Below, one piece after another: positions 20,809 through 35,470 of a DNA stretch of 35,676 nucleotides. How positions within the stretch are numbered: position 1 is the stretch's first letter; each line of letters begins with the position of its first letter. The translations under genes were made by a program, and so were the position numbers. Under the pieces are notes generated by a model, which saw only the letters and a list, made by a program, of their open reading frames with translations, had not been told where the DNA came from and did not search any database. This stretch comes from a virus, in the IMG/VR virus record IMGVR_UViG_3300033052_000009, positions 1 to 35,676 of that record. One strand, given 5' to 3'.

Positions 20809-21354
20809 TCAAGCCGCCATCCACTGCGCCACTTCGCCTTCCTCCAGCAGCAACATCGACTTGACCTTGATCGGCATAGAGAACCCCGGAAACAGCACCA
20901 TGGTATAGCGCCCCTTCCCTGTCTTGACGATACCGGTCAGGCCAGCAAAGCCGCCTTCGGTGATGCGTACCTTTTCGCCGCGCTTGAACGTGCGCGCCGC
21001 CTTCTCGGGTAGGTTTCGCCTTTCGATCTTGCGCAAGTTATCTAGCGCGCGATCCGATATCAGGGGGACGCGGCCGCAATAACGGAAGATCGAGAACGGG
21101 GGATGCGGTGAGACCTGGCGCAGGGATTCCATCATCAACCCGTTAAGCGACGATGCTCGGGCGAATGCATAGCTCGGCAACACAGGGACGATCATTTCCC
21201 GGCGTTCGTTCGAGCGAGGCCGGCGCTTCGATATCGCCTTGGTCGGGGTCCATACGTCAAAGCCTGCCTTCTTCAGGCTCTCCGTGACGAGCATGGTCCG
21301 CGGTCCCGCCATTCGGAGGATGCACCATTGGTCTTCGGTCATGCCCTTGCCCAT
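20809..21354 (-). CDS. Phage NusG paralogue, probable antiterminator
   Basis: A 181-residue protein. Residues 8-110 resemble the NusG NGN domain: QWCILRMAGPRTMLVTESLK then GFDVWTP, and VPVLPSYAFARA in place of the NusG 'LFPGYVF' strand. Residues about 122-150 are a KOW motif: RTFKRGEKVRITEGGFAGLTGIV. Host NusG and RfaH-type proteins with this architecture bind RNA polymerase and suppress pausing or termination. The gene is the last large gene before the late operon on the same strand, the place of a Q-type regulator. GAGGAG is about eleven bases before the ATG; an inner ATG at 21342 is possible. Confidence 0.85.
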   Translation of the reverse strand: MGKGMTEDQWCILRMAGPRTMLVTESLKKAGFDVWTPTKAISKRRPRSNERREMIVPVLPSYAFARASSLNGLMMESLRQVSPHPPFSIFRYCGRVPLISDRALDNLRKIERRNLPEKAARTFKRGEKVRITEGGFAGLTGIVKTGKGRYTMVLFPGFSMPIKVKSMLLLEEGEVAQWMAA

Positions 21355-21932: not shown

Positions 21933-22109
21933 TCAATTCTCCTTCTCAATCCTCAGTTCGATGATGTCGAATGGCTCCCCGCGGTCCTGCCAGTTGAGCT
22001 GCTTTGCGGAGTACGTGTGCTTGCTGACCTCTCCGTTTCTGAAGATGACGCGGAGTTGTTTCTCTCCGGTGCGAGGGGGCTTCCATTGGGTGGGGTGCCA
22101 TTTAGTCAT
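21933..22109 (-). CDS. 58-residue hypothetical protein
   Basis: MTKWHPTQWKPPRTGEKQLR begins a compact, codon-rich small protein with VIFRNGEVSKHTYSAKQLNW and ending FDIIELRIEKEN. The stop is one base before the next ATG, and the start has an ATGA overlap with the frame upstream. There is no ribosome binding site of its own, so it may depend on coupling to upstream translation or be leaderless. Not recognised. Confidence 0.6.
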   Translation of the reverse strand: MTKWHPTQWKPPRTGEKQLRVIFRNGEVSKHTYSAKQLNWQDRGEPFDIIELRIEKEN

Positions 22110-22597
22110 GACACAGTACGTCCACCCGTTAGGGCCACATCAGAGGGTTTCCCTGCTGACGTGAAACGGATTAACCCACTGGCGCGCTCTGTTGTGTTTA
22201 CCGTGCACCGCTTCGGGCGGTCAGTCCGGGCCCCCACCGTTGGACAGTGCCAGCTTGGCGTCGTCCGCGCGTGGTCCGCAAGGTGACCCAATAAATTGGG
22301 CCGTGGCGTTTTAAGCACGTATATCCCCATTGGCATCCAGCGAGCCGCAGGGAGGGGCGGGTGACACCCCCACAACATCGGTCGGTTTGAGTGCTGACCA
22401 GGCACTTTGGGGATTTCGCTTTGACCGGACTCAACTCGGTGGCGATAGCGGCGTCCCAAGGCGGCTTTTTCAGTCACCCCCTCGGATAAAGCGCCAATTC
22501 GCATAACCGGGTTGTACTTATCCGCAAAATCGATTAATACCGATCCCACGGGGCGCGTCACGGGGTGAGTGGCGCGCTCTTTTTTATGTCCGTTCAT
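22106..22597 (-). CDS. Doubtful 163-residue frame in a structured region
   Basis: An open frame starts MNGHKKERATHPVTRPVGSV and ends in an ATGA overlap with the next gene, which argues for translation. Against it: no clear ribosome binding site, codon use less GC3-rich than the neighbours, an amino acid mix in the second half (HPPLPAARWMPMG, TTPSWHCPTVGARTD) that looks non-coding, and several hairpins in the DNA. It may be a decayed gene or a chance frame over an origin or regulatory region. Confidence 0.3.
   Translation of the reverse strand: MNGHKKERATHPVTRPVGSVLIDFADKYNPVMRIGALSEGVTEKAALGRRYRHRVESGQSEIPKVPGQHSNRPMLWGCHPPLPAARWMPMGIYVLKTPRPNLLGHLADHARTTPSWHCPTVGARTDRPKRCTVNTTERASGLIRFTSAGKPSDVALTGGRTVS
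22287..22300. repeat. Palindrome CCCAAT-AA-ATTGGG
   Basis: A perfect six-base inverted repeat with a two-base loop inside the structured interval after the replication gene. No T run. Could be a protein binding site or part of an RNA fold. Confidence 0.4.
22390..22406. repeat. Inverted repeat AGTGC-N7-GCACT
   Basis: Perfect five-base arms around TGACCAG. It lies in the same structured interval. Function unknown; it may be part of an origin, an operator or an RNA hairpin. Confidence 0.35.
22518..22526 (+). promoter_or_regulatory. Near-consensus DnaA box TTATCCGCA
   Basis: One mismatch to TTATCCACA. It lies in a locally AT-rich patch (22490-22545 and 22600-22690) next to the phage replication gene. 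A second look-alike, TTATCGATA, follows at about 22678. This is weak evidence for a replication origin here. Confidence 0.35.
22553..22585 (+). terminator. Possible intrinsic terminator, plus strand
   Basis: GCGCG-TCAC pairs with GTGA and, after a four-base bulge, CGCGC; the hairpin is followed by TCTTTTTT. The T run is right for a plus-strand terminator, but no plus-strand gene lies nearby to be ended, except for read-through from the lipoprotein far to the left. The bulge lowers confidence. Confidence 0.3.
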
Positions 22598-22651
22598 AGC
22601 CCCGTAAGTGGCTTGAACGCTAATGACTTTTCTCCCTCAAAACGGCGAAAC

Positions 22652-22670
22652 TGATTCAATTTTTGAATCA
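22652..22670. repeat. Inverted repeat TGATTCA-ATTTT-TGAATCA with two GANTC sites
   Basis: Perfect seven-base arms, each with one GANTC (GATTC at 22653, GAATC at 22665), 24 bases after the replication gene stop. GANTC is the CcrM methylation and GcrA binding sequence in Alphaproteobacteria. Confidence 0.5.
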
Positions 22671-22693
22671 ATCCCACTTATCGATAAAAGCGA

Positions 22694-23290
22694 TTACCCA
22701 GCCCTCCTGACAGCCCCAAGCAAGGGGATGACATTCGGGTTGAGCTGGCGTCGGATTTCCTCGGCTTCGGCCGTGCGGCCCATGCGGTCGTAGAGAGCAG
22801 CGGTGCGCTGCATCTGCTCGCGGGCGTCGTAATGCTCCCTGATCTCGGGGGCCGCGTTACCGGAAGGCCGGCGGCTATTGCGGACCCAATTGCGCCATGT
22901 CGCGAACCAGTCGAGCTTGATGCCCTTCTGTCCGGGCTGCGAGCGCCAATAGTCGGCGAACTGGGCAAACTCGGCGTCTATCTCGTCATCGTACCAGCGA
23001 CGCTGTTTGCGGGCGAAGTCGCGCCACTCGGCGGGGATCTGGAAATCATTGGCGAGGCGGACACCTCGAGCGCCTTCCTTCACCGCGCGCTTGGGAAGCA
23101 TCCCATGGGCGTCCAGAGCGGCGGCGATGCGTTCGACATGCCGCACCTCGATCATGGCGAAGTCGGCATAGACGGCGGGGTTAAATTTCGCCCCCATCTG
23201 GCGCATGGCCGCGAGGCAATGAAAAACATGCGGGGGACGCACGCTCGCCTCTTTGGCTATCAAGGCCAAGGTGGGGTCAAAGGGCGTCAT
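22694..23290 (-). CDS. Phage replication protein (replisome organiser type)
   Basis: A 198-residue protein starting MTPFDPTLALIAKEASVRPP. The N-terminal half looks like a winged-helix domain (HVFHCLAAMRQMGAKFNPAV). Residues about 78-140 carry the segment LANDFQIPAEWRDFARKQR, then FADYWRSQPGQKGIKLDW, then ATWRNWVRNS, a pattern very common in phage replication initiators and helicase loaders. The gene ends the overlapping early leftward operon. It should recruit host replication proteins to the phage origin. Confidence 0.75.
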   Translation of the reverse strand: MTPFDPTLALIAKEASVRPPHVFHCLAAMRQMGAKFNPAVYADFAMIEVRHVERIAAALDAHGMLPKRAVKEGARGVRLANDFQIPAEWRDFARKQRRWYDDEIDAEFAQFADYWRSQPGQKGIKLDWFATWRNWVRNSRRPSGNAAPEIREHYDAREQMQRTAALYDRMGRTAEAEEIRRQLNPNVIPLLGAVRRAG

Positions 23291-23595
23291 TGCAGCAGTT
23301 CCGCGAACAGCGGGAGCCGGATCACGACAAGCGATTTGCCCCCGTCCTCGCGCATGACCATGAAGTCTGCGCCCTCAAGAGCTTGCTCGATCCACTCGGG
23401 AAGGTTCTTGCGGCGCTTAGCCTCACCGGACAGGGTGATTTTCGGATCGAAGCCCGCGGTGACGCGAATGTCGTTCTTGGCGAACACAGTAGCGCCAGAA
23501 AGCGGGACGCGCTTGGCGTCCAGCCCATAGGCTTTAAGGTCATTGACCAGCTCGCGCTCAAAGCGCGCACCTTTATCCCGAGACATCTTACCCAT
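23287..23595 (-). CDS. Holliday-junction-resolvase-like PDDEXK nuclease
   Basis: A 102-residue protein starting MGKMSRDKGARFERELVNDL. The opening KGARFERELVNDLKAYGLDA and RVPLSG resemble archaeal Hjc-type resolvases; the later GEAKRRKNLPEWIEQAL supplies the E.K part of a PD-(D/E)XK site (Asp in ITAGFDPKI is the likely partner). It overlaps the DnaA-like gene by eight bases. Probable role: recombination intermediate cleavage or phage DNA processing. Confidence 0.75.
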   Translation of the reverse strand: MGKMSRDKGARFERELVNDLKAYGLDAKRVPLSGATVFAKNDIRVTAGFDPKITLSGEAKRRKNLPEWIEQALEGADFMVMREDGGKSLVVIRLPLFAELLQ

Positions 23596-23848
23596 AGATT
23601 TCGAGCATCCTGAGACCATTGGAGACGGTGGAGTGGTCGCGGTTGAATGTGCGCCCGATCGATGCCAGCGAACCGCCACGTTCCCGCAGCTCCTTCATGG
23701 CTCGCCAGCGCGCGATGCAGACGGGTCGGACGCGAGAAGGGCCGATCAGGTCGGCGGCGCGAAAACCATGCTGACGCGCGACTTGTGCGACGACCTCAAG
23801 ACCGGTGCGAGCGACGTACGGCGGCGGGGTGTACCAGGCGGGGATCAT
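23588..23848 (-). CDS. DnaA domain IV-like DNA-binding protein
   Basis: An 86-residue protein starting MIPAWYTPPPYVARTG. Residues 38-83 match DnaA domain IV: RVRPVCIARWRAMKELRERG, then SLASIGRTFNRDHSTVSNGL. The RDHSTV motif corresponds to the DnaA signature (G)GRDHTTV, which reads the DnaA box. The ATPase and other DnaA domains are absent. It starts in an ATGA overlap with the GcrA-like gene. It could compete with host DnaA at its boxes or recruit proteins to the phage origin; both are inference. Confidence 0.82.
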   Translation of the reverse strand: MIPAWYTPPPYVARTGLEVVAQVARQHGFRAADLIGPSRVRPVCIARWRAMKELRERGGSLASIGRTFNRDHSTVSNGLRMLEIYG

Positions 23849-23991
23849 ACGCGCCCCCGATAGACAATGCCCGCGATAGAGTTGCGTGAGCGGTCGCCAA
23901 GCTTGCGGGATATCTGGGTGAACGTCAGCCCGCGCGCGCGCATGGCGCGAACGGCGTCAAGCTCGTCGTCGGTCCATCGCCTCATCGCCAT
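23845..23991 (-). CDS. GcrA-like small helix-turn-helix protein
   Basis: A 48-residue protein, MAMRRWTDDELDAVRAMRAR then GLTFTQISRKLGDRSRNSIA and GIVYRGRV. It matches the GcrA N-terminal DNA-binding domain in order: W-T-D-E, a helix, G-L-(x)-Q-I-(x)-L-G, and R-N-(S)-I-(x)-G. Full GcrA is about 170 residues with a sigma-70-binding C-terminal part, which is missing here. GcrA recognises methylated GANTC sites. Start chosen at 23991, overlapping the previous stop by ten bases; a longer reading to 24030 is less likely. Confidence 0.75.
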   Translation of the reverse strand: MAMRRWTDDELDAVRAMRARGLTFTQISRKLGDRSRNSIAGIVYRGRV

Positions 23992-24299
23992 CCCAGCGAC
24001 CTCCGATAGAAGTCGGGATGCACGCCGCACTCTTTCGAGCGGGCCGCAATGAAGGCGTCGATCCTCTTTGCCAGCGTGCCGGTATCGACCAGAGCGCAGT
24101 CGGGAGAGTATAGGCCAGCGTCAGCGTCCTTTGCCGTGCCGATCCGACGCGATCCCTTCTTGCGGTCACGCTCGATCCGGCTAATGTCACGCTCGTTGAT
24201 GTTCGGGCAGATGGTTGCCTGCGCCCATTGCAGCACCTTGTCGGGGGCCATGTAGGATAGCGCCTTGCGGATGCGCCAGTCGTCGCCGGTCGGGATCAT
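23982..24299 (-). CDS. Hypothetical early protein
   Basis: A 105-residue protein starting MIPTGDDWRIRKALSYMAPD in an ATGA overlap with the methyltransferase gene. It contains ATICPNINERDISRIERDRKK, which has the look of a short helix-turn-helix, then LAKRIDAFIAARSKECGVHP. It may be a further DNA-binding protein. Not recognised. Confidence 0.6.
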   Translation of the reverse strand: MIPTGDDWRIRKALSYMAPDKVLQWAQATICPNINERDISRIERDRKKGSRRIGTAKDADAGLYSPDCALVDTGTLAKRIDAFIAARSKECGVHPDFYRRSLGWR

Positions 24300-25036
24300 G
24301 CCGCCTCTCCGTCCAAAAAGAGGTCTTTCTGACGCTGAGCGTCCTCGATGCGCTTGCAGGCGATGTCGAAGTATTTGGCCTCGCGTTCGATGCCGATGAA
24401 ATCGCGGGCCATCTGGACCGCCGCAACGCCAGTGGTGCCACTACCCATGAAAGGGTCCAGCACGGACTCGCCTTCGGCCGTGAAGTCGCCGATGATTTCA
24501 GCCATAAGGCGGCGCGGCTTCTCGGTCGGGTGGACGCCGTGCCGCTCTGGGCCATTCACAAGGTGGGTGTAAACGCCGCGCTTGCCCCCAGCATTCCAGC
24601 GGGCGTGGCTTGCACCAGCCCAAGCGGCGACGAAGTTCTCCGCGCCAGCGCCGGGGCCTTGCCCATTTAGCTGCGGCATGGAATCCGGTTTCACCCAAAC
24701 GCAGGCGCGCTTATATTTCATGGGGCTGGCGTTGATAGCTTGCGCCCAAGGCCACACTCCCTCTGGGGTGCAAAAGGCTAGAAACCAGCCATCGCACTGG
24801 TCGCCCATCGCCACCACCCGCTCGCGGATTGCATCGATCGAGTCGAAGTCGACCGCAGGACTCGCAGGGCGCCCGTCATTTCGGCGAGCCGTGTTCTTTC
24901 CGTCCAGTGCCTTGTGCGTGATAGCCTCATATGGCGGGTCAGTGATGAGATGCGCAAACCGGCCAAGCGTCGGCACGATTTCGAGCGCATCCCCGCAATA
25001 CAGGGTGGCGCGGCCTATGGTGACGGGCTGGGTCAT
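24296..25036 (-). CDS. DNA methyltransferase (N6-adenine or N4-cytosine), orphan
   Basis: A 246-residue protein starting MTQPVTIGRATLYCGDALEI. Motif IV DPPY is at 33-36 and motif I DPFMGSGTTG at 194-203, so the order is IV then I (beta group, as in CcrM). HPTEKP (about 172-177) is the usual P-loop-adjacent motif X-side marker of N6/N4 enzymes. The CcrM C-terminal non-catalytic domain is lacking, so the target sequence cannot be read. No restriction gene is next to it. Probable roles: protection from host restriction, or marking of DNA for regulators encoded in the same operon. Confidence 0.93.
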   Translation of the reverse strand: MTQPVTIGRATLYCGDALEIVPTLGRFAHLITDPPYEAITHKALDGKNTARRNDGRPASPAVDFDSIDAIRERVVAMGDQCDGWFLAFCTPEGVWPWAQAINASPMKYKRACVWVKPDSMPQLNGQGPGAGAENFVAAWAGASHARWNAGGKRGVYTHLVNGPERHGVHPTEKPRRLMAEIIGDFTAEGESVLDPFMGSGTTGVAAVQMARDFIGIEREAKYFDIACKRIEDAQRQKDLFLDGEAA

Positions 25037-25173
25037 GTTCTCAACGCCTCCGGTATCTCCCTGCCCATGTCGCGGCAGATTTGACGGGCCTTTTCGACGG
25101 GGTCGGGCGTGGGGCGCTTGGTGTAGCGGACGTGCTCGACGACTACGGGCTTGCGCTTGAAGGGCCAAATCAC
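25033..25173 (-). CDS. 46-residue hypothetical protein
   Basis: The GTG at 25173 is chosen: GGGAGG lies about eight bases upstream and it overlaps the previous stop (GTGA). Product begins VIWPFKRKPVVVEHVRYTKR, basic, and ends REIPEALRT in an ATGA overlap with the methyltransferase. Not recognised. Confidence 0.6.
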   Translation of the reverse strand: MIWPFKRKPVVVEHVRYTKRPTPDPVEKARQICRDMGREIPEALRT

Positions 25174-25388
25174 TGTTTGACCTCCCAATATCCGGGCTTT
25201 ACAACTTTCCGGTTCCACCAAGGCCCAACCGTCGCGGTGGGCACCCAGCGCACGGTGCGGATTTTCATGTCGTCTCGCGAAACGCCGCAGTCAGGGCAGC
25301 AATCGACATCAACGAAGAACGTCTTGCCTCGCCACGCATGAAATGCTCGTCCGCACCCGCATAGCGCGCGCTTTTCCCAGCCGCTCAT
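25170..25388 (-). CDS. Small zinc-ribbon protein
   Basis: A 72-residue protein starting MSGWEKRALCGCGRAFHAWR. CGCG (about 10-13) and CCPDC (about 30-34) form a likely four-Cys zinc site. It overlaps both neighbours by four bases. The aromatic, basic C-terminus (WVPTATVGPWWNRKV) may bind nucleic acid. Function unknown. Confidence 0.65.
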   Translation of the reverse strand: MSGWEKRALCGCGRAFHAWRGKTFFVDVDCCPDCGVSRDDMKIRTVRWVPTATVGPWWNRKVVKPGYWEVKQ

Positions 25389-25681
25389 GCGTCACCACGG
25401 AGAATGCGGGCCATCTTCTTTCCGACGTGCGCGGAGTTTTCAGTGACGCAAGCCAGAGCACGGTCGATGCGGTCGTTCTTGTCTGCTAGAGCATCGACGC
25501 AGCGGGTGTGGGCGGCGTGAAGGTCGCGCGATTGCTCTATGGCGGCAGATGCATCGACTAACGGCTTGTTTCGCTCGTTTAGCGCGTCCGCCACCTTCGC
25601 CACCGTGAGCCACGACATGCCAAGGGCTCCGACGATACCGCCCCCTATGGCGGATACGGTGATGAGGATAAGGTCGTTCAT
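25385..25681 (-). CDS. Membrane-anchored coiled-coil protein
   Basis: A 98-residue protein: MNDLILITVSAIGGGIVGAL begins with a transmembrane helix (about 4-24), followed by a helical, charged region (ADALNERNKPLVDASAAIEQ...). ATGA overlap with the gene upstream. The shape recalls small phage membrane proteins such as exclusion or lysis accessory factors, but its early-operon place does not favour lysis. Confidence 0.6.
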   Translation of the reverse strand: MNDLILITVSAIGGGIVGALGMSWLTVAKVADALNERNKPLVDASAAIEQSRDLHAAHTRCVDALADKNDRIDRALACVTENSAHVGKKMARILRGDA

Positions 25682-26142
25682 GCTGCAATCTCCACGATGA
25701 GCGCCGCAAGCTCGCGTTGAAGGTCGCGAAGGTCGGGCAGATAGCCGAGCCGTTCGGTATGCACCTCGGCAACGCCACCGGGCGACGTGGGGGCGCGGGC
25801 TTCTGCGATCTTGAGGTTAACGCGAGCTATCAGGGGCAGGATGTCGCCGTCACGGCCGTGCAGCGGAACGATGTGACTGCCGAAACGCTCAGCGATCGGA
25901 TTCAGAACATGCCCGCCAAAGACCAGCCCAAGGCGGTCTCGGTAAATGCTCGACAAGTCAGCTTTCTTGTTCGCCGCGTTGCTGATTGTACCGAGTGAAA
26001 CGTCAATTGCCTCGGCCATCTCGGCCAGCGTAACGCCGTACTCCTGCTGGATATTCAGGATGACGCGGGCGACAGCGGCACGGGTGCGCGTTGTTTCCTC
26101 GACGCTGTTAACGCGCAATACGTTGAACGGCTTAGTCGCCAT
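25678..26142 (-). CDS. XRE-type helix-turn-helix regulator
   Basis: A 154-residue protein starting MATKPFNVLRVNSVEETTRT; GGAGGT five to seven bases before ATG 26142 fixes the start. Residues about 28-75 form an XRE-like HTH: QEYGVTLAEMAEAIDVSLGT then ISNAANKKADLSS. The rest (PLIARVNLKIAEARA, LQRELAALIVEIAA) is helical. It overlaps the previous gene by eleven bases. It may control early or lysogeny genes. Different in family from the CI-type repressor. Confidence 0.7.
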   Translation of the reverse strand: MATKPFNVLRVNSVEETTRTRAAVARVILNIQQEYGVTLAEMAEAIDVSLGTISNAANKKADLSSIYRDRLGLVFGGHVLNPIAERFGSHIVPLHGRDGDILPLIARVNLKIAEARAPTSPGGVAEVHTERLGYLPDLRDLQRELAALIVEIAA

Positions 26143-26404
26143 AACGACCTCCATGGAAGGGACGAACAGGGATGAACTGGAAGAGGTCGACACGACCGTC
26201 GATCTCGGTTTCGATGAGGATGCGCGCGCTCGGCTTGTTGGCGAGATCGTCGCGGAGATTGTCTCGGGCCTCGGCGTCGATACGGCGATGATGCCCGGGA
26301 ACTATGTTACCTTCGGGAGAGACGGCCGTGGACGTGGCAATCTCCCCCGAAGGATGCGCGCGAGGATAGCGACCAGCGCGCGGGTTGGTTTTGCGGACGA
26401 TCAT
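26132..26404 (-). CDS. 90-residue hypothetical protein
   Basis: Starts MIVRKTNPRAGRYPRAHPSG, ends DLFQFIPVRPFHGGRYGD. ATGA overlap with the winged-helix gene. Basic N-terminal part, mixed C-terminal part (RILIETEIDGRVDLF). Not recognised. Confidence 0.55.
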   Translation of the reverse strand: MIVRKTNPRAGRYPRAHPSGEIATSTAVSPEGNIVPGHHRRIDAEARDNLRDDLANKPSARILIETEIDGRVDLFQFIPVRPFHGGRYGD

Positions 26405-26841
26405 GCGGGGACGCTTTCTTCGGCCAGCATCAGCCCCGACCCTCGCAAGGTGAGCAGTGCCACGGGAGTTCCCGCCAGTTTGGAGCGCACCCTAGCCACC
26501 AACACCCGCAGCGAGTTGCTGTCTGCTTCCGAGCCGATGCGCTCCATTAGGACGTCGCGGCTCACAAGCGATCCGCGCGAGGCAGCCAAGGTGTGCAAAA
26601 TCGTCAACTCTGCGGGCGTGAAATGAACACGCGTCCCCTCGAACGACGCGCTTCGGTTTCGAGGATCGATGCGCCAGCCGCCGATCTCAACAACCGGATC
26701 AGGCGTCAGGTTCGCGCCGCAGTTGTGACAGAAGTGCCCCCCACGAGGTTGACCGCCCCCCTTCACGATCAGGCTGCCGTGGATTGGCGGGTGGGATGCG
26801 ATTGCATCCAATTGCGGACCTTTGCCTCGGTTTCTGGCCAC
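26401..26841 (-). CDS. OmpR-type winged-helix protein without receiver
   Basis: Up to 146 residues from GTG 26841, or 122 from GTG 26766, which stands two bases after the Cro-like stop. After an N-terminal segment with HFCHNCGANL, residues about 53-140 are an OmpR/PhoB winged helix: GGWRIDPRNRSASFEGTRVH, then FTPAELTILHTLAAS, RDVLMERIG and SLRVLVARVRSKL. There is no phosphorylation receiver. The arrangement resembles the DNA-binding half of CtrA-like regulators, though this fold is widespread. Likely a transcription regulator of the phage or host. Confidence 0.75.
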   Translation of the reverse strand: MARNRGKGPQLDAIASHPPIHGSLIVKGGGQPRGGHFCHNCGANLTPDPVVEIGGWRIDPRNRSASFEGTRVHFTPAELTILHTLAASRGSLVSRDVLMERIGSEADSNSLRVLVARVRSKLAGTPVALLTLRGSGLMLAEESVPA

Positions 26842-26981
26842 AATCGCCTAGGCCTCTTGCCGCCCTCTCCCTTAAGCTGCGGGACGAGATTCTTGTCATT
26901 CAGCGCCAAAACGCCAAACTGACTTTCGCTAAGCTCATGTTCTGCGATAAAGGCCGCAATGTCGGTGAGAAGGTCTGTCAT
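26769..26981 (-). CDS. Cro-like small DNA-binding protein
   Basis: A 70-residue protein starting MTDLLTDIAAFIAEHELSES. It has the look of a single HTH: SQFGVLALNDKNLVPQLKGE, then PRRLWPETEAKVRNWM. It is the first gene of the leftward operon, 15 bases from the operator GGGGGAAATATCCCCC, facing away from the repressor. That is the position of a Cro or anti-repressor. Sequence family is not certain. Confidence 0.65.
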   Translation of the reverse strand: MTDLLTDIAAFIAEHELSESQFGVLALNDKNLVPQLKGEGGKRPRRLWPETEAKVRNWMQSHPTRQSTAA

Positions 26982-26995
26982 AGCAACGACCTTAT

Positions 26996-27080
26996 GGGGG
27001 AAATATCCCCCGTCGTCAATATGTGTTGGGGGATATTTCGTGAGTCGCATGGCCCCGAGCGGGCATGCGATATATCCCCC
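26996..27080. promoter_or_regulatory. Divergent control region: leftward early promoter, repressor promoter, three operators
   Basis: Operator copies: GGGGGAAATATCCCCC at 26996-27011; a half-degenerate GGGGGATATTTCG from 27028; and GCGATATATCCCCC at 27067-27080. On the minus strand TTGACG (27019-27014) with 17 bases to CCATAA could be the leftward promoter; the first operator fills the spacer. The third copy ends directly at the repressor ATG (27081). A GAGTC (GANTC) lies at 27042-27046. Confidence 0.75.
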
Positions 27081-27695
27081 ATGCGAGATATTCAGGCTAT
27101 CCGTGACGCCATTGAGCGTGAAATGAAGGAAAAGGGCTTTAGCAGGCGAAGTCTTTCCAGCGCAGCAGGCATGTCCGAAAGCGCCGTGCGCGACTTGCTC
27201 ACCCGAACTGATAACCCCGGCATAGGCACCTTGCGCAAAATTGCTGAAGCCCTGACAATGCCGGTTGATGAGCTGACCGGCACAGCCCTAATGGTCCCTG
27301 TGCTGGGAAAAATCGGAGCGGGAGGGCAAGTTTTGTTTTCCGTCGATCCCGATATTGAACTACACGATCTAGATGAGATGCCTTACGTTCCGAGGCCTCC
27401 ATTGACTCGCGGACGCCTGATGGCGCTGGAAGTCGTGGGCGCTTCAATGTTGCCTAAGTATGAGGACGGAGACGTGGTTTACGTCCGTCGCGATCACGAC
27501 GGCATATTGCCCACTTACCTTAATCGGTATTGCGCAGTGCGAACATCGGACGGGGGAACCTTCCTTAAAATCCTCGCCCCTGGTAGCCAGTCCGGACGCT
27601 ACACTCTGCGATCGCTTAATGCGCCCGATATGGAGAATGTTGAGGTTGTGTGGGCTGCGCCGGTGAGTTTCGTAAGGCCAAGAGACGCGGATTAG
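27081..27695 (+). CDS. Self-cleaving CI/LexA-type phage repressor (S24 peptidase)
   Basis: A 204-residue protein, MRDIQAIRDAIEREMKEKGF onward. Residues 5-65 are an HTH_3 domain (SRRSLSSAAGMSESAVRDLL and TLRKIAEALTM). Cleavage site GAGG at 79-82 (Ala80-Gly81), nucleophile Ser122 in VVGASMLPKYEDGD, general base Lys163 in FLKIL. Length is normal for CI-like proteins. ATG 27081 directly follows an operator and has no ribosome binding site; translation of a leaderless mRNA is possible. It should hold the lysogenic state and be inactivated after RecA activation. Confidence 0.92.
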   Translation: MRDIQAIRDAIEREMKEKGFSRRSLSSAAGMSESAVRDLLTRTDNPGIGTLRKIAEALTMPVDELTGTALMVPVLGKIGAGGQVLFSVDPDIELHDLDEMPYVPRPPLTRGRLMALEVVGASMLPKYEDGDVVYVRRDHDGILPTYLNRYCAVRTSDGGTFLKILAPGSQSGRYTLRSLNAPDMENVEVVWAAPVSFVRPRDAD

Positions 27696-33350: not shown

Positions 33351-33646
33351 CGGCGGAGCGACTCCTGAAAGCGCCGGAAGCTGCTGCCCATCTGGCGGTC
33401 TGCACGCGCACGCTTAGGAAGCTGCGGCAAGATGGCGTTATCGACTATGTCTTGATCGGTGGCGCAATCCGCTACAGCGTAGCCGACCTTGACCGATTTA
33501 TCAACGAAAGGCGGACGCGATGCGTCTATATCAAAGGACCGGCTCGCCGTACTGGTGGCTCGACACAACCGTCGGGGGTAACCGATATCGCGGCAGTACG
33601 GGCGAGACGGGAAAGCGAGAAGCGAAAAAGGCGGCTGACCGCATAG
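33347..33646 (+). CDS. Excisionase-like HTH protein
   Basis: A 99-residue protein with GTG start after GGGGAGGGGG. Residues 4-55 are a MerR/HTH_17-type domain: RLLKAPEAAAHLAVCTRTLR, then KLRQDGVIDYVLIGGAIRYS and VADLDRFINE. It lies before the integrase, as excisionases do. Its last 127 bases overlap the integrase start in another frame; that Arg-rich part may be dispensable. Confidence 0.75.
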   Translation: MTAERLLKAPEAAAHLAVCTRTLRKLRQDGVIDYVLIGGAIRYSVADLDRFINERRTRCVYIKGPARRTGGSTQPSGVTDIAAVRARRESEKRKRRLTA

Positions 33647-34629
33647 TCGATCAGCTGGAACAGGACCTCAGACGTGCCGGCGAAGTCTGGACGATCAGCC
33701 AGGCACTCGGCAAATGGTACACCGAACATGCCGAAATGAAGCGCAGCGGCGATGCGATATGGTCGAACATCAGCAACATCGAACGCTGTCTCGATTGCTC
33801 GACCACTGTGGACATGCTCACCTCTGCCATGCTGATGGACTTTCGCGCGAAACGCCGCGGCGAACTGGCACACCGAAGCGCCAAGACAGACGAGGCGAAA
33901 GAGCGCGCTGCGAAGCTGCCGCCTCGCTATGTGCAGGCACCGACCATCAATCGGGATCTGGCCTATCTGCAAGCGGCCCTGCGCCACGCCAAGCTGATGC
34001 ACCTACAGCCGGTGGCTGATATCCCCTGGTCGAAGATCAAGTACCCCGAGAACGAACCTCGCAACCGATTTGCCTCGCACGACGAGTTCGAGGCGATGCA
34101 GTCAATCGACGACTCCGATCTGGCAGATATCATCCTTGCGGCTACCGCCACCGGCCTGAGGCGCGGCAACATGCGCTGGACGTGGCGTCAGGTCGATTTG
34201 CGCGGCAAGACCGTAACGATCGCTCGAACCAAGGGGCGAATGCCTATCATCGTCCGCCTGTCCGCTCCTGTCGTCGAAATGCTCAAGCGTCGACGATCTG
34301 CCGCCGCCAAGGGAGCGGAAGTGCCGTCGCCAGATGCCGAGGTGTTCGACTGGACGAACTTCCGCCGCCGCTGGGAGAGGTTGCGCAAATCGCTCGGCAT
34401 GGCGGATTTTCACTGGCACGATCTTCGCCACACCTTCGGGACTTGGGCTCGAAAAGCTGGCGTCGATCTGCCCACGCTGAAAGAGGCGATGGCGCATCGG
34501 GACATCAAAACGACCATGCGTTACGCCCAAGTCGAAGCCGACGAGATTGCGACCACTTTCGACAAAGTTGGGGACAGAATGGCACAATCTGCGGCACATT
34601 CGGAGGAAAAGTCGTGGCTAGCCAGCTAG
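33520..34629 (+). CDS. int: Tyrosine recombinase, phage integrase
   Basis: A 369-residue protein, MRLYQRTGSPYWWLDTTVGG onward. An N-terminal arm-binding part, a SAM-like core-binding domain (about 55-165), and a catalytic domain with Arg214 (ATGLRRGNM), His300-x-x-Arg303 (HWHDLRHTFG), His326 (AMAHRD) and Tyr335 (TMRYAQ). All catalytic residues are present, so it should be active. It ends 17 bases from the tRNA-Arg junction. Confidence 0.95.
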   Translation: MRLYQRTGSPYWWLDTTVGGNRYRGSTGETGKREAKKAADRIVDQLEQDLRRAGEVWTISQALGKWYTEHAEMKRSGDAIWSNISNIERCLDCSTTVDMLTSAMLMDFRAKRRGELAHRSAKTDEAKERAAKLPPRYVQAPTINRDLAYLQAALRHAKLMHLQPVADIPWSKIKYPENEPRNRFASHDEFEAMQSIDDSDLADIILAATATGLRRGNMRWTWRQVDLRGKTVTIARTKGRMPIIVRLSAPVVEMLKRRRSAAAKGAEVPSPDAEVFDWTNFRRRWERLRKSLGMADFHWHDLRHTFGTWARKAGVDLPTLKEAMAHRDIKTTMRYAQVEADEIATTFDKVGDRMAQSAAHSEEKSWLAS

Positions 34630-35209: not shown

Positions 35210-35470
35210 TCACCCCGTACCCAGCAACGCGTCGAGTTCGCCCTTCGCTTCCAGTTCCGCAAGATCGTCGCTGCCGCCGATATGCTTTCCGTCGATGAAG
35301 ATCTGCGGGACGGTCCGGCGACCATGCGCGCGATCGACCATCGCTTCGAAGCCGGCGCGGTCCATCGTCACGTCGATTTCCTGAAAACCGGCGCCCTTGC
35401 GATCGAGCAACGCCTTCGCGCGCGAGCAGAATCCACAAAAGGCCTTCGTATAGATTTCGATCTTCGCCAT
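35210..35470 (-). CDS. grxC: Glutaredoxin, class I (GrxC-like)
   Basis: An 86-residue protein starting MAKIEIYTKAFCGFCSRAKA. Active site CGFC (12-15) instead of the usual CPYC; TVPQIFIDGKHIGG (about 53-66) binds glutathione. Reduces protein disulfides with glutathione in the cytosol. Next to comF on the same strand, as in many alphaproteobacteria. Confidence 0.95.
   Translation of the reverse strand: MAKIEIYTKAFCGFCSRAKALLDRKGAGFQEIDVTMDRAGFEAMVDRAHGRRTVPQIFIDGKHIGGSDDLAELEAKGELDALLGTG

What the first reader, a model, noticed from the sequence alone, without database searches (positions are those of the whole stretch)
23588..26841. One phage operon encodes short look-alikes of the alphaproteobacterial cell-cycle regulators
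The leftward early operon contains a protein that matches only DnaA domain IV, one that matches only the GcrA DNA-binding domain, a DNA methyltransferase with the CcrM motif order, and an OmpR-type winged helix without receiver (the half that CtrA uses for DNA binding). In Caulobacter and relatives DnaA, GcrA, CtrA and CcrM form one circuit that times replication and division. Four separate parts in one operon of overlapping genes suggests a module that takes over, or reads, the host cell cycle, for instance by competing for DnaA boxes and methylated GANTC sites. The DnaA and GcrA matches are visible in sequence; the CtrA and CcrM links are weaker because those folds are common. The joint function is inference.
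Basis: partly seen in the sequence, partly recalled or inferred. Interest (0 to 1): 0.85.

Follow-up and report, generated by a model that had tools for sequence, protein, structure and literature searches.

The report
Phage replication genes resembling cell-cycle regulators
A bacterial virus carries two tiny DNA-binding proteins that resemble the DNA-gripping ends of the host's DnaA and GcrA cell-cycle proteins, but relatives place the DnaA-like one among ordinary phage replication genes, so this is probably a phage replication block and not a four-part takeover of the host cell cycle.

Summary
The four genes are real, but they do not form a four-part cell-cycle module. The 86-aa protein (23588-23848) is a genuine DnaA domain IV by Pfam, PDB sequence and fold, with the DNA-reading RDH motif intact and no AAA+ domain. 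The 48-aa protein (23845-23991) is closest to the GcrA DNA-binding domain but sits just under Pfam's cut-off, and it lacks GcrA's sigma-binding domain. The methyltransferase is beta-class like CcrM but not CcrM: it lacks about 100 C-terminal residues, and relatives occur in Gordonia phages. The winged helix is generic OmpR type; CtrA ranks only 20th of its matches, and the helix is missing from the equivalent gene of the closest relative. In ten sphingomonad-type prophage loci, nine place the DnaA-IV gene beside a resolvase-type nuclease and/or a phage replication initiator. A GcrA-like partner occurs in two, plus one weak case. All four parts together occur only in the window. In 50 records carrying related methyltransferases, DnaA-IV occurs in 15, GcrA in 6, both in none. 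Best reading: phage early operon whose DnaA-IV (and perhaps the GcrA-like protein) are DNA-binding helpers of phage replication. Host competition by the small pair is not excluded.

The parts
27072..27695 (+). XRE/S24 (cI/LexA-like) repressor facing the operon; promoter-operator repeats lie at about 27009-27081
   Evidence: LexA/XRE models, match begins near 27096 in the longer frame; inverted repeat I3; ATG read
26769..26982 (-). Small first gene of the leftward operon in the Cro position (HTH assignment is by eye; no family match)
26401..26841 (-). OmpR-type winged helix without receiver, with an N-terminal leader; not CtrA-specific
   Evidence: only the leader is shared with L157
25678..26193 (-). 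XRE-like HTH protein (longest frame; the real start is probably further in)
   Evidence: PF20432 26.3 bits
24296..25036 (-). Beta-class N6/N4 DNA methyltransferase, 246 aa, no CcrM C-terminal domain
23982..24299 (-). 105-aa protein of unknown family between the MTase and the GcrA-like gene
   Evidence: no match
23845..23991 (-). 48-aa GcrA-DBD/Myb-like helix-turn-helix protein without linker or sigma-interacting domain
23588..23848 (-). 86-aa protein consisting of a DnaA domain IV only
23287..23595 (-). Hjc/PDDEXK-type Holliday-junction resolvase
   Evidence: phrog_244 E 2.6e-16; Hjc
22694..23290 (-). Replication initiation / primosomal protein; only the C-terminal part of the family profiles is matched
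   Evidence: phrog_3992 E 1.2e-12, phrog_1408
20809..21354 (-). NusG/KOW-like protein further down the same strand (possible antiterminator)
   Evidence: KOW, weak

Best explanation
This is the leftward early operon of a temperate phage, probably in a sphingomonad, read after the S24-type repressor releases its operators. The methyltransferase probably modifies phage DNA (inference). The DnaA-domain-IV protein is a DNA-binding helper in the phage replication and recombination block. It has no AAA+ domain and so cannot unwind an origin by itself. The likeliest role is to mark or occupy a DnaA-box-like site and bring in the phage initiator RepO and the host helicase, with the Hjc-type enzyme resolving the products. 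The 48-aa GcrA/Myb-like protein is a second small DNA-binding helper encoded next to it. Family assignment and gene order are shown; adaptor function, target DNA and partner contacts are inferred.
For: Window order GcrA-like, DnaA-IV, Hjc, RepO. L157/L162: GcrA-like, DnaA-IV, RusA, one gene, RepO; L158/L163: HTH, DnaA-IV, then RepO; L159 and L160: RusA, DnaA-IV, RepO; L164 and L165: DnaA-IV followed by RepO or a RepO-like gene; L170 and L171: DnaA-IV next to a gene that reads as a VRR-NUC-type nuclease. PHROG annotation of 31 neighbours gives replication initiation O-like, RusA, DnaD-like helicase loader and MazG families. R70, D71 and H72 are invariant in 15 phage copies. Third-position divergence shows the dnaA-IV gene is a selected coding gene. 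A PHROG already named 'DnaA-like replication initiation protein' matches.
Against: No DnaA-box cluster in the window: 11 sites with at most one mismatch against 16.6 expected, one exact site against 0.64 expected. No iterons found. RepO contact is untested. L161 carries DnaA-IV without recognised replication neighbours. Several neighbour labels rest on profiles built from few sequences.
Confidence: 0.6

Rival explanations
1. The small proteins are decoys: DnaA-IV occupies host DnaA boxes and the GcrA-like DBD occupies GcrA sites, blocking host initiation or GcrA-dependent transcription, because each has the DNA-binding half and lacks the active half (AAA+ or sigma-interacting domain).
For: Truncation of both proteins to the DNA-binding half; DNA-reading residues kept; no box cluster on the phage itself; the pair recurs in a diverged prophage.
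Against: DnaA-IV usually travels without a GcrA-like gene and sits inside the replication block; the GcrA-like recognition helix is only partly like host GcrA (K and H of 'GKxHR' are I and Y).
Confidence: 0.22
2. All four genes form one mimic of the DnaA-GcrA-CcrM-CtrA circuit that takes over the host cell cycle.
For: Co-location in one operon; phage GcrA homologues and phage GANTC methyltransferases are published (PMC3556154, PMC5537653).
Against: CtrA and CcrM assignments fail; no relative has all four; DnaA-IV and GcrA were never found together in 50 MTase-bearing records; the winged helix is absent from the equivalent gene of L157.
Confidence: 0.05
3. The small HTH proteins are local transcription regulators of the phage operon, unrelated to replication.
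For: Small phage HTH proteins are often regulators; the GcrA-like protein also resembles Myb/SANT, Tc3 and paired domains.
Against: Does not explain the repeated DnaA-IV/RusA/RepO order.
Confidence: 0.13

Closest known systems
Phage DnaA-like small proteins (PHROG 27829; 'DnaA C-terminal' of Synechococcus phage Ssp-JY42)
   Same: Domain IV only, small gene in the phage early region
   Different: This copy sits beside a GcrA-DBD-like gene; sequence identity is low (about 30-48%, 66-68% to the closest relative)
GcrA homologue of Caulobacter phage phiCbK (gp222; Gill 2012, PMC3556154)
   Same: Phage-borne protein of the GcrA family in an alphaproteobacterial phage
   Different: The window copy is 48 aa, DBD only, with no sigma-interacting domain; family score just below cut-off
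Phage GANTC methyltransferases of Sinorhizobium and Paracoccus (Decewicz 2017, PMC5537653)
   Same: Methyltransferase gene upstream of the phage replication genes
   Different: Those have an NPPY/F/W motif; this one has DPPY; its specificity is unknown
CtrA
   Same: OmpR-type winged helix
   Different: No receiver; other OmpR-family regulators match better; the domain is not conserved at this locus

Membership tests
DnaA | Domain IV DNA-binding fold | tested here: met
   PF08299 44 bits; fold matches 3pvp, 1j1v, 1l8q
DnaA | DNA-reading residues (R399, D433, H434, T435 of E. coli; residue roles from own knowledge) | tested here: met
   By alignment to 1j1v they are R39, D71, H72, S73; RDH invariant in 15 phage copies
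DnaA | AAA+ ATPase domain and domain I | tested here: not met
   Protein is 86 aa, domain IV only
GcrA | N-terminal DNA-binding domain, residues 1-45 | tested here: inconclusive
   25.5 bits against cut-off 26.9; 5yiu is top PDB match by sequence and fold; Myb scores equally for the L157 homologue
GcrA | C-terminal sigma-interacting domain, residues 108-173 (PMC7403470) | tested here: not met
   Gene ends after 48 codons, overlapping the dnaA-IV start; same layout in L157
GcrA | Binding to m6A-GANTC promoters | not testable with these tools
   Needs EMSA on methylated and unmethylated DNA
CcrM | Beta-class motif order (DPPY before the SAM-binding motif) | tested here: met
   N6_N4_Mtase; DPPY and DPFMGSGTT read in sequence
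CcrM | C-terminal domain of about 100 residues and equivalog score | tested here: not met
   Only CcrM 188-259 of 366 aligned; 68 bits against 830
CcrM | GANTC specificity | not testable with these tools
   Unrelated phage enzymes can have it (PMC5537653), so it is not excluded
CtrA | Receiver domain plus CtrA-like winged helix | tested here: not met
   No receiver; CtrA ranks 20th of 28 NCBIfam models
Phage DnaA-like replication proteins | Small DnaA-IV gene next to resolvase or replication initiator | tested here: met
   Window and eight of nine further sphingomonad-type loci

The most novel reading that the evidence does not exclude
The overlapping 48-aa GcrA-DBD and 86-aa DnaA-IV genes encode a pair of dominant-negative decoys that together hold the sphingomonad host out of chromosome initiation and GcrA-driven transcription while the phage replicates.
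Probability: 0.1. Interest if true: 0.75.

Novelty: new member of a known kind. Interest (0 to 1): 0.35.

Why it matters
Phage DnaA-IV proteins appear repeatedly beside replication initiators and resolvases, yet I found no functional study of them in the held library. The window and L157 give a testable case in which such a protein is coupled to a GcrA-like DNA-binding domain. If either is a decoy, it would be a minimal tool for stopping alphaproteobacterial replication. The correction also matters: gene co-location in a phage operon can look like a regulatory circuit when two of four parts are generic.

Tried and rejected
CtrA origin of the wHTH: rejected. CcrM orthology of the MTase: rejected; relatives in Gordonia phages. 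DnaA-box cluster or iterons as a phage origin: not found. GANTC depletion as a sign of a GcrA-specific phage: rejected, because prophages without a GcrA-like gene are depleted as much (L159, L160) and sphingomonad host segments also are, to 0.43. GcrA match reading past the stop: rejected, that frame lies inside the dnaA-IV gene. Direct scans of viral contigs with single small proteins found nothing; the six-row alignment was too diverse to scan; megablast against phages found nothing. Alignment A1 contains one DnaA row typed partly from memory; no conclusion rests on it. The same holds for the C. crescentus GcrA row in A5, which agrees with the 5yiu sequence shown.

Full report
WHAT IS THERE. 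The window is an IMG/VR virus record of 35,676 bases with a head-tail temperate phage layout: capsid, terminase and tail genes leftward, an integrase at 33520-34629, and a glutaredoxin at 35210-35470 that is probably host flank. The glutaredoxin is closest to a Sphingobium genome among four alphaproteobacterial genomes tried (64% identity), so a sphingomonad host is likely but not proven. A repressor gene on the + strand (ATG near 27072) faces a leftward operon of overlapping genes.

THE FOUR PARTS. (1) 23588-23848: DnaA domain IV, nothing else. Pfam 44 bits, DnaA-DBD chains best in PDB, AlphaFold model pLDDT 86 whose top nine fold matches are DnaA. By the 1j1v alignment, the residues I know from the literature to read the DnaA box (E. 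coli R399, D433, H434, T435) are R39, D71, H72 and S73; R70-D71-H72 is invariant in 15 phage copies. (2) 23845-23991: 48 aa, closest to the GcrA DBD by sequence and fold but 1.4 bits under Pfam's cut-off. It shares 43% with some sphingomonad GcrA DBDs in the alignment, and the genome search found host GcrA DBDs at up to 46% identity. The fold is a generic three-helix HTH: Tc3 transposase, paired and SANT domains follow closely. It has no sigma-interacting domain, which in GcrA spans residues 108-173 (PMC7403470). (3) 24296-25036: beta-class methyltransferase; best PDB match DpnA, with CcrM aligned only around the SAM-binding end. It fails the CcrM equivalog (68 bits against 830). Relatives occur in Rhizobium, Sinorhizobium, Sulfitobacter, Gordonia, Mycobacterium and cyanobacterial phages. 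(4) 26401-26841: OmpR-type winged helix without receiver; RstA, TctD and MtrA match better than CtrA.

ARE THEY A SET? Among 50 virus records carrying relatives of the methyltransferase, DnaA-IV is present in 15, GcrA in 6, both in none. As a background I used 33 records carrying relatives of the window's terminase: DnaA-IV 0 of 33 over the cut-off, GcrA 1 of 33. So DnaA-IV does travel with this methyltransferase more often than background (Fisher p = 1.9e-4 by record). The records are related, and at 50% MTase identity only three clusters carry DnaA-IV, so the p-value overstates the case. GcrA does not differ (p = 0.15). Many of these records are fragments, so absence is weak evidence.

RELATIVES OF THE SMALL PAIR. 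A survey of 398 Sphingomonadales genomes found five small DnaA-IV genes (three further matches were full-length DnaA). A family search added two, and viral contigs added two more plus duplicates of two known ones. In L157 (the same prophage as L162) the GcrA-like gene again lies directly upstream of DnaA-IV: DnaA-IV is 68% and the GcrA-like protein 44% identical to the window, with codon third positions most diverged. L158 has a weak GcrA-like HTH upstream (PF07750 16.8 bits). The other loci have no clear GcrA-like neighbour, though L160 has a Myb-like one. L157 also shows that the winged helix is not part of a conserved set: its gene at that place keeps a similar 23-residue leader but has no winged helix.

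WHAT SURROUNDS DnaA-IV. Window: Hjc-type resolvase then RepO. L157: RusA, one gene, RepO. L158: RepO. L159 and L160: RusA, DnaA-IV, RepO. L164 and L165: RepO or RepO-like. L170 and L171: a nuclease that reads as VRR-NUC type (by eye, not by a family search). L161: none recognised. PHROG annotation of 31 neighbours gives replication initiation O-like, RusA, DnaD-like loader and MazG families; the MazG-like hits come from the separate MTase-linked group. Outside Alphaproteobacteria, similar proteins occur in Synechococcus phages and uncultured phages; in EBPR podovirus 2 a methylase, the DnaA-IV gene and a following gene keep a similar order.

HOW IT PROBABLY WORKS. Shown: fold, domain truncation, gene order, conservation of the DNA-reading motif. 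Inferred: DnaA-IV marks or occupies a DnaA-box-like site and helps RepO start phage replication. Against this, I found no box cluster or iteron array in the window, which keeps the decoy reading alive. RepO here matches only the C-terminal part of the initiator profiles, so a separate DNA-binding partner would be useful to it, but this is conjecture; L159 and L160 have longer initiators as well as DnaA-IV.

KNOWN OR NEW. Phage GcrA homologues (phiCbK gp222, PMC3556154) and phage methyltransferases with GANTC specificity placed upstream of replication genes (PMC5537653) are published, and GcrA and CcrM analogues in phages have been discussed together (PMC9437464). Small phage DnaA-IV proteins already have a PHROG and database annotations. 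What is less familiar is the adjacent pair of DBD-only GcrA-like and DnaA-IV genes. I rate the finding a new member of a known kind, interest 0.35.

Noticed in passing
window 20809-21354 (-): NusG/KOW-like protein downstream on the operon strand, with a 39% homologue in L002; possibly a phage antiterminator.
   Followed up: no
window, whole; L157-L163, L170, L171: GANTC is about four-fold depleted in the window (48 against 187 expected) and 2.5- to 10-fold in other sphingomonad prophages, against 0.43 of expectation in sphingomonad host segments.
   Followed up: partly
window about 22651-22669: A perfect AT-rich palindrome TGATTCAAAAATTGAATCA holding two GANTC sites lies in the long gap after RepO.
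   Followed up: no
window 22110-22690: Roughly 580 bases between RepO and the next short gene (21933-22109) without a convincing gene; a candidate place for an origin or a regulatory RNA.
   Followed up: partly
window 26401-26841; L157 12020-12226: Equivalent genes of two prophages share a leader but carry different C-terminal domains (winged helix against none), suggesting domain swapping at this site.
   Followed up: partly
L020-L075 group: A separate group of phages carries DnaA-IV close upstream of the same methyltransferase family, with MazG-like neighbours.
   Followed up: no
L074 (G048:C1:7637-8002): A methyltransferase-bearing phage record with GcrA matches to both the DNA-binding and the C-terminal domain.
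   Followed up: no
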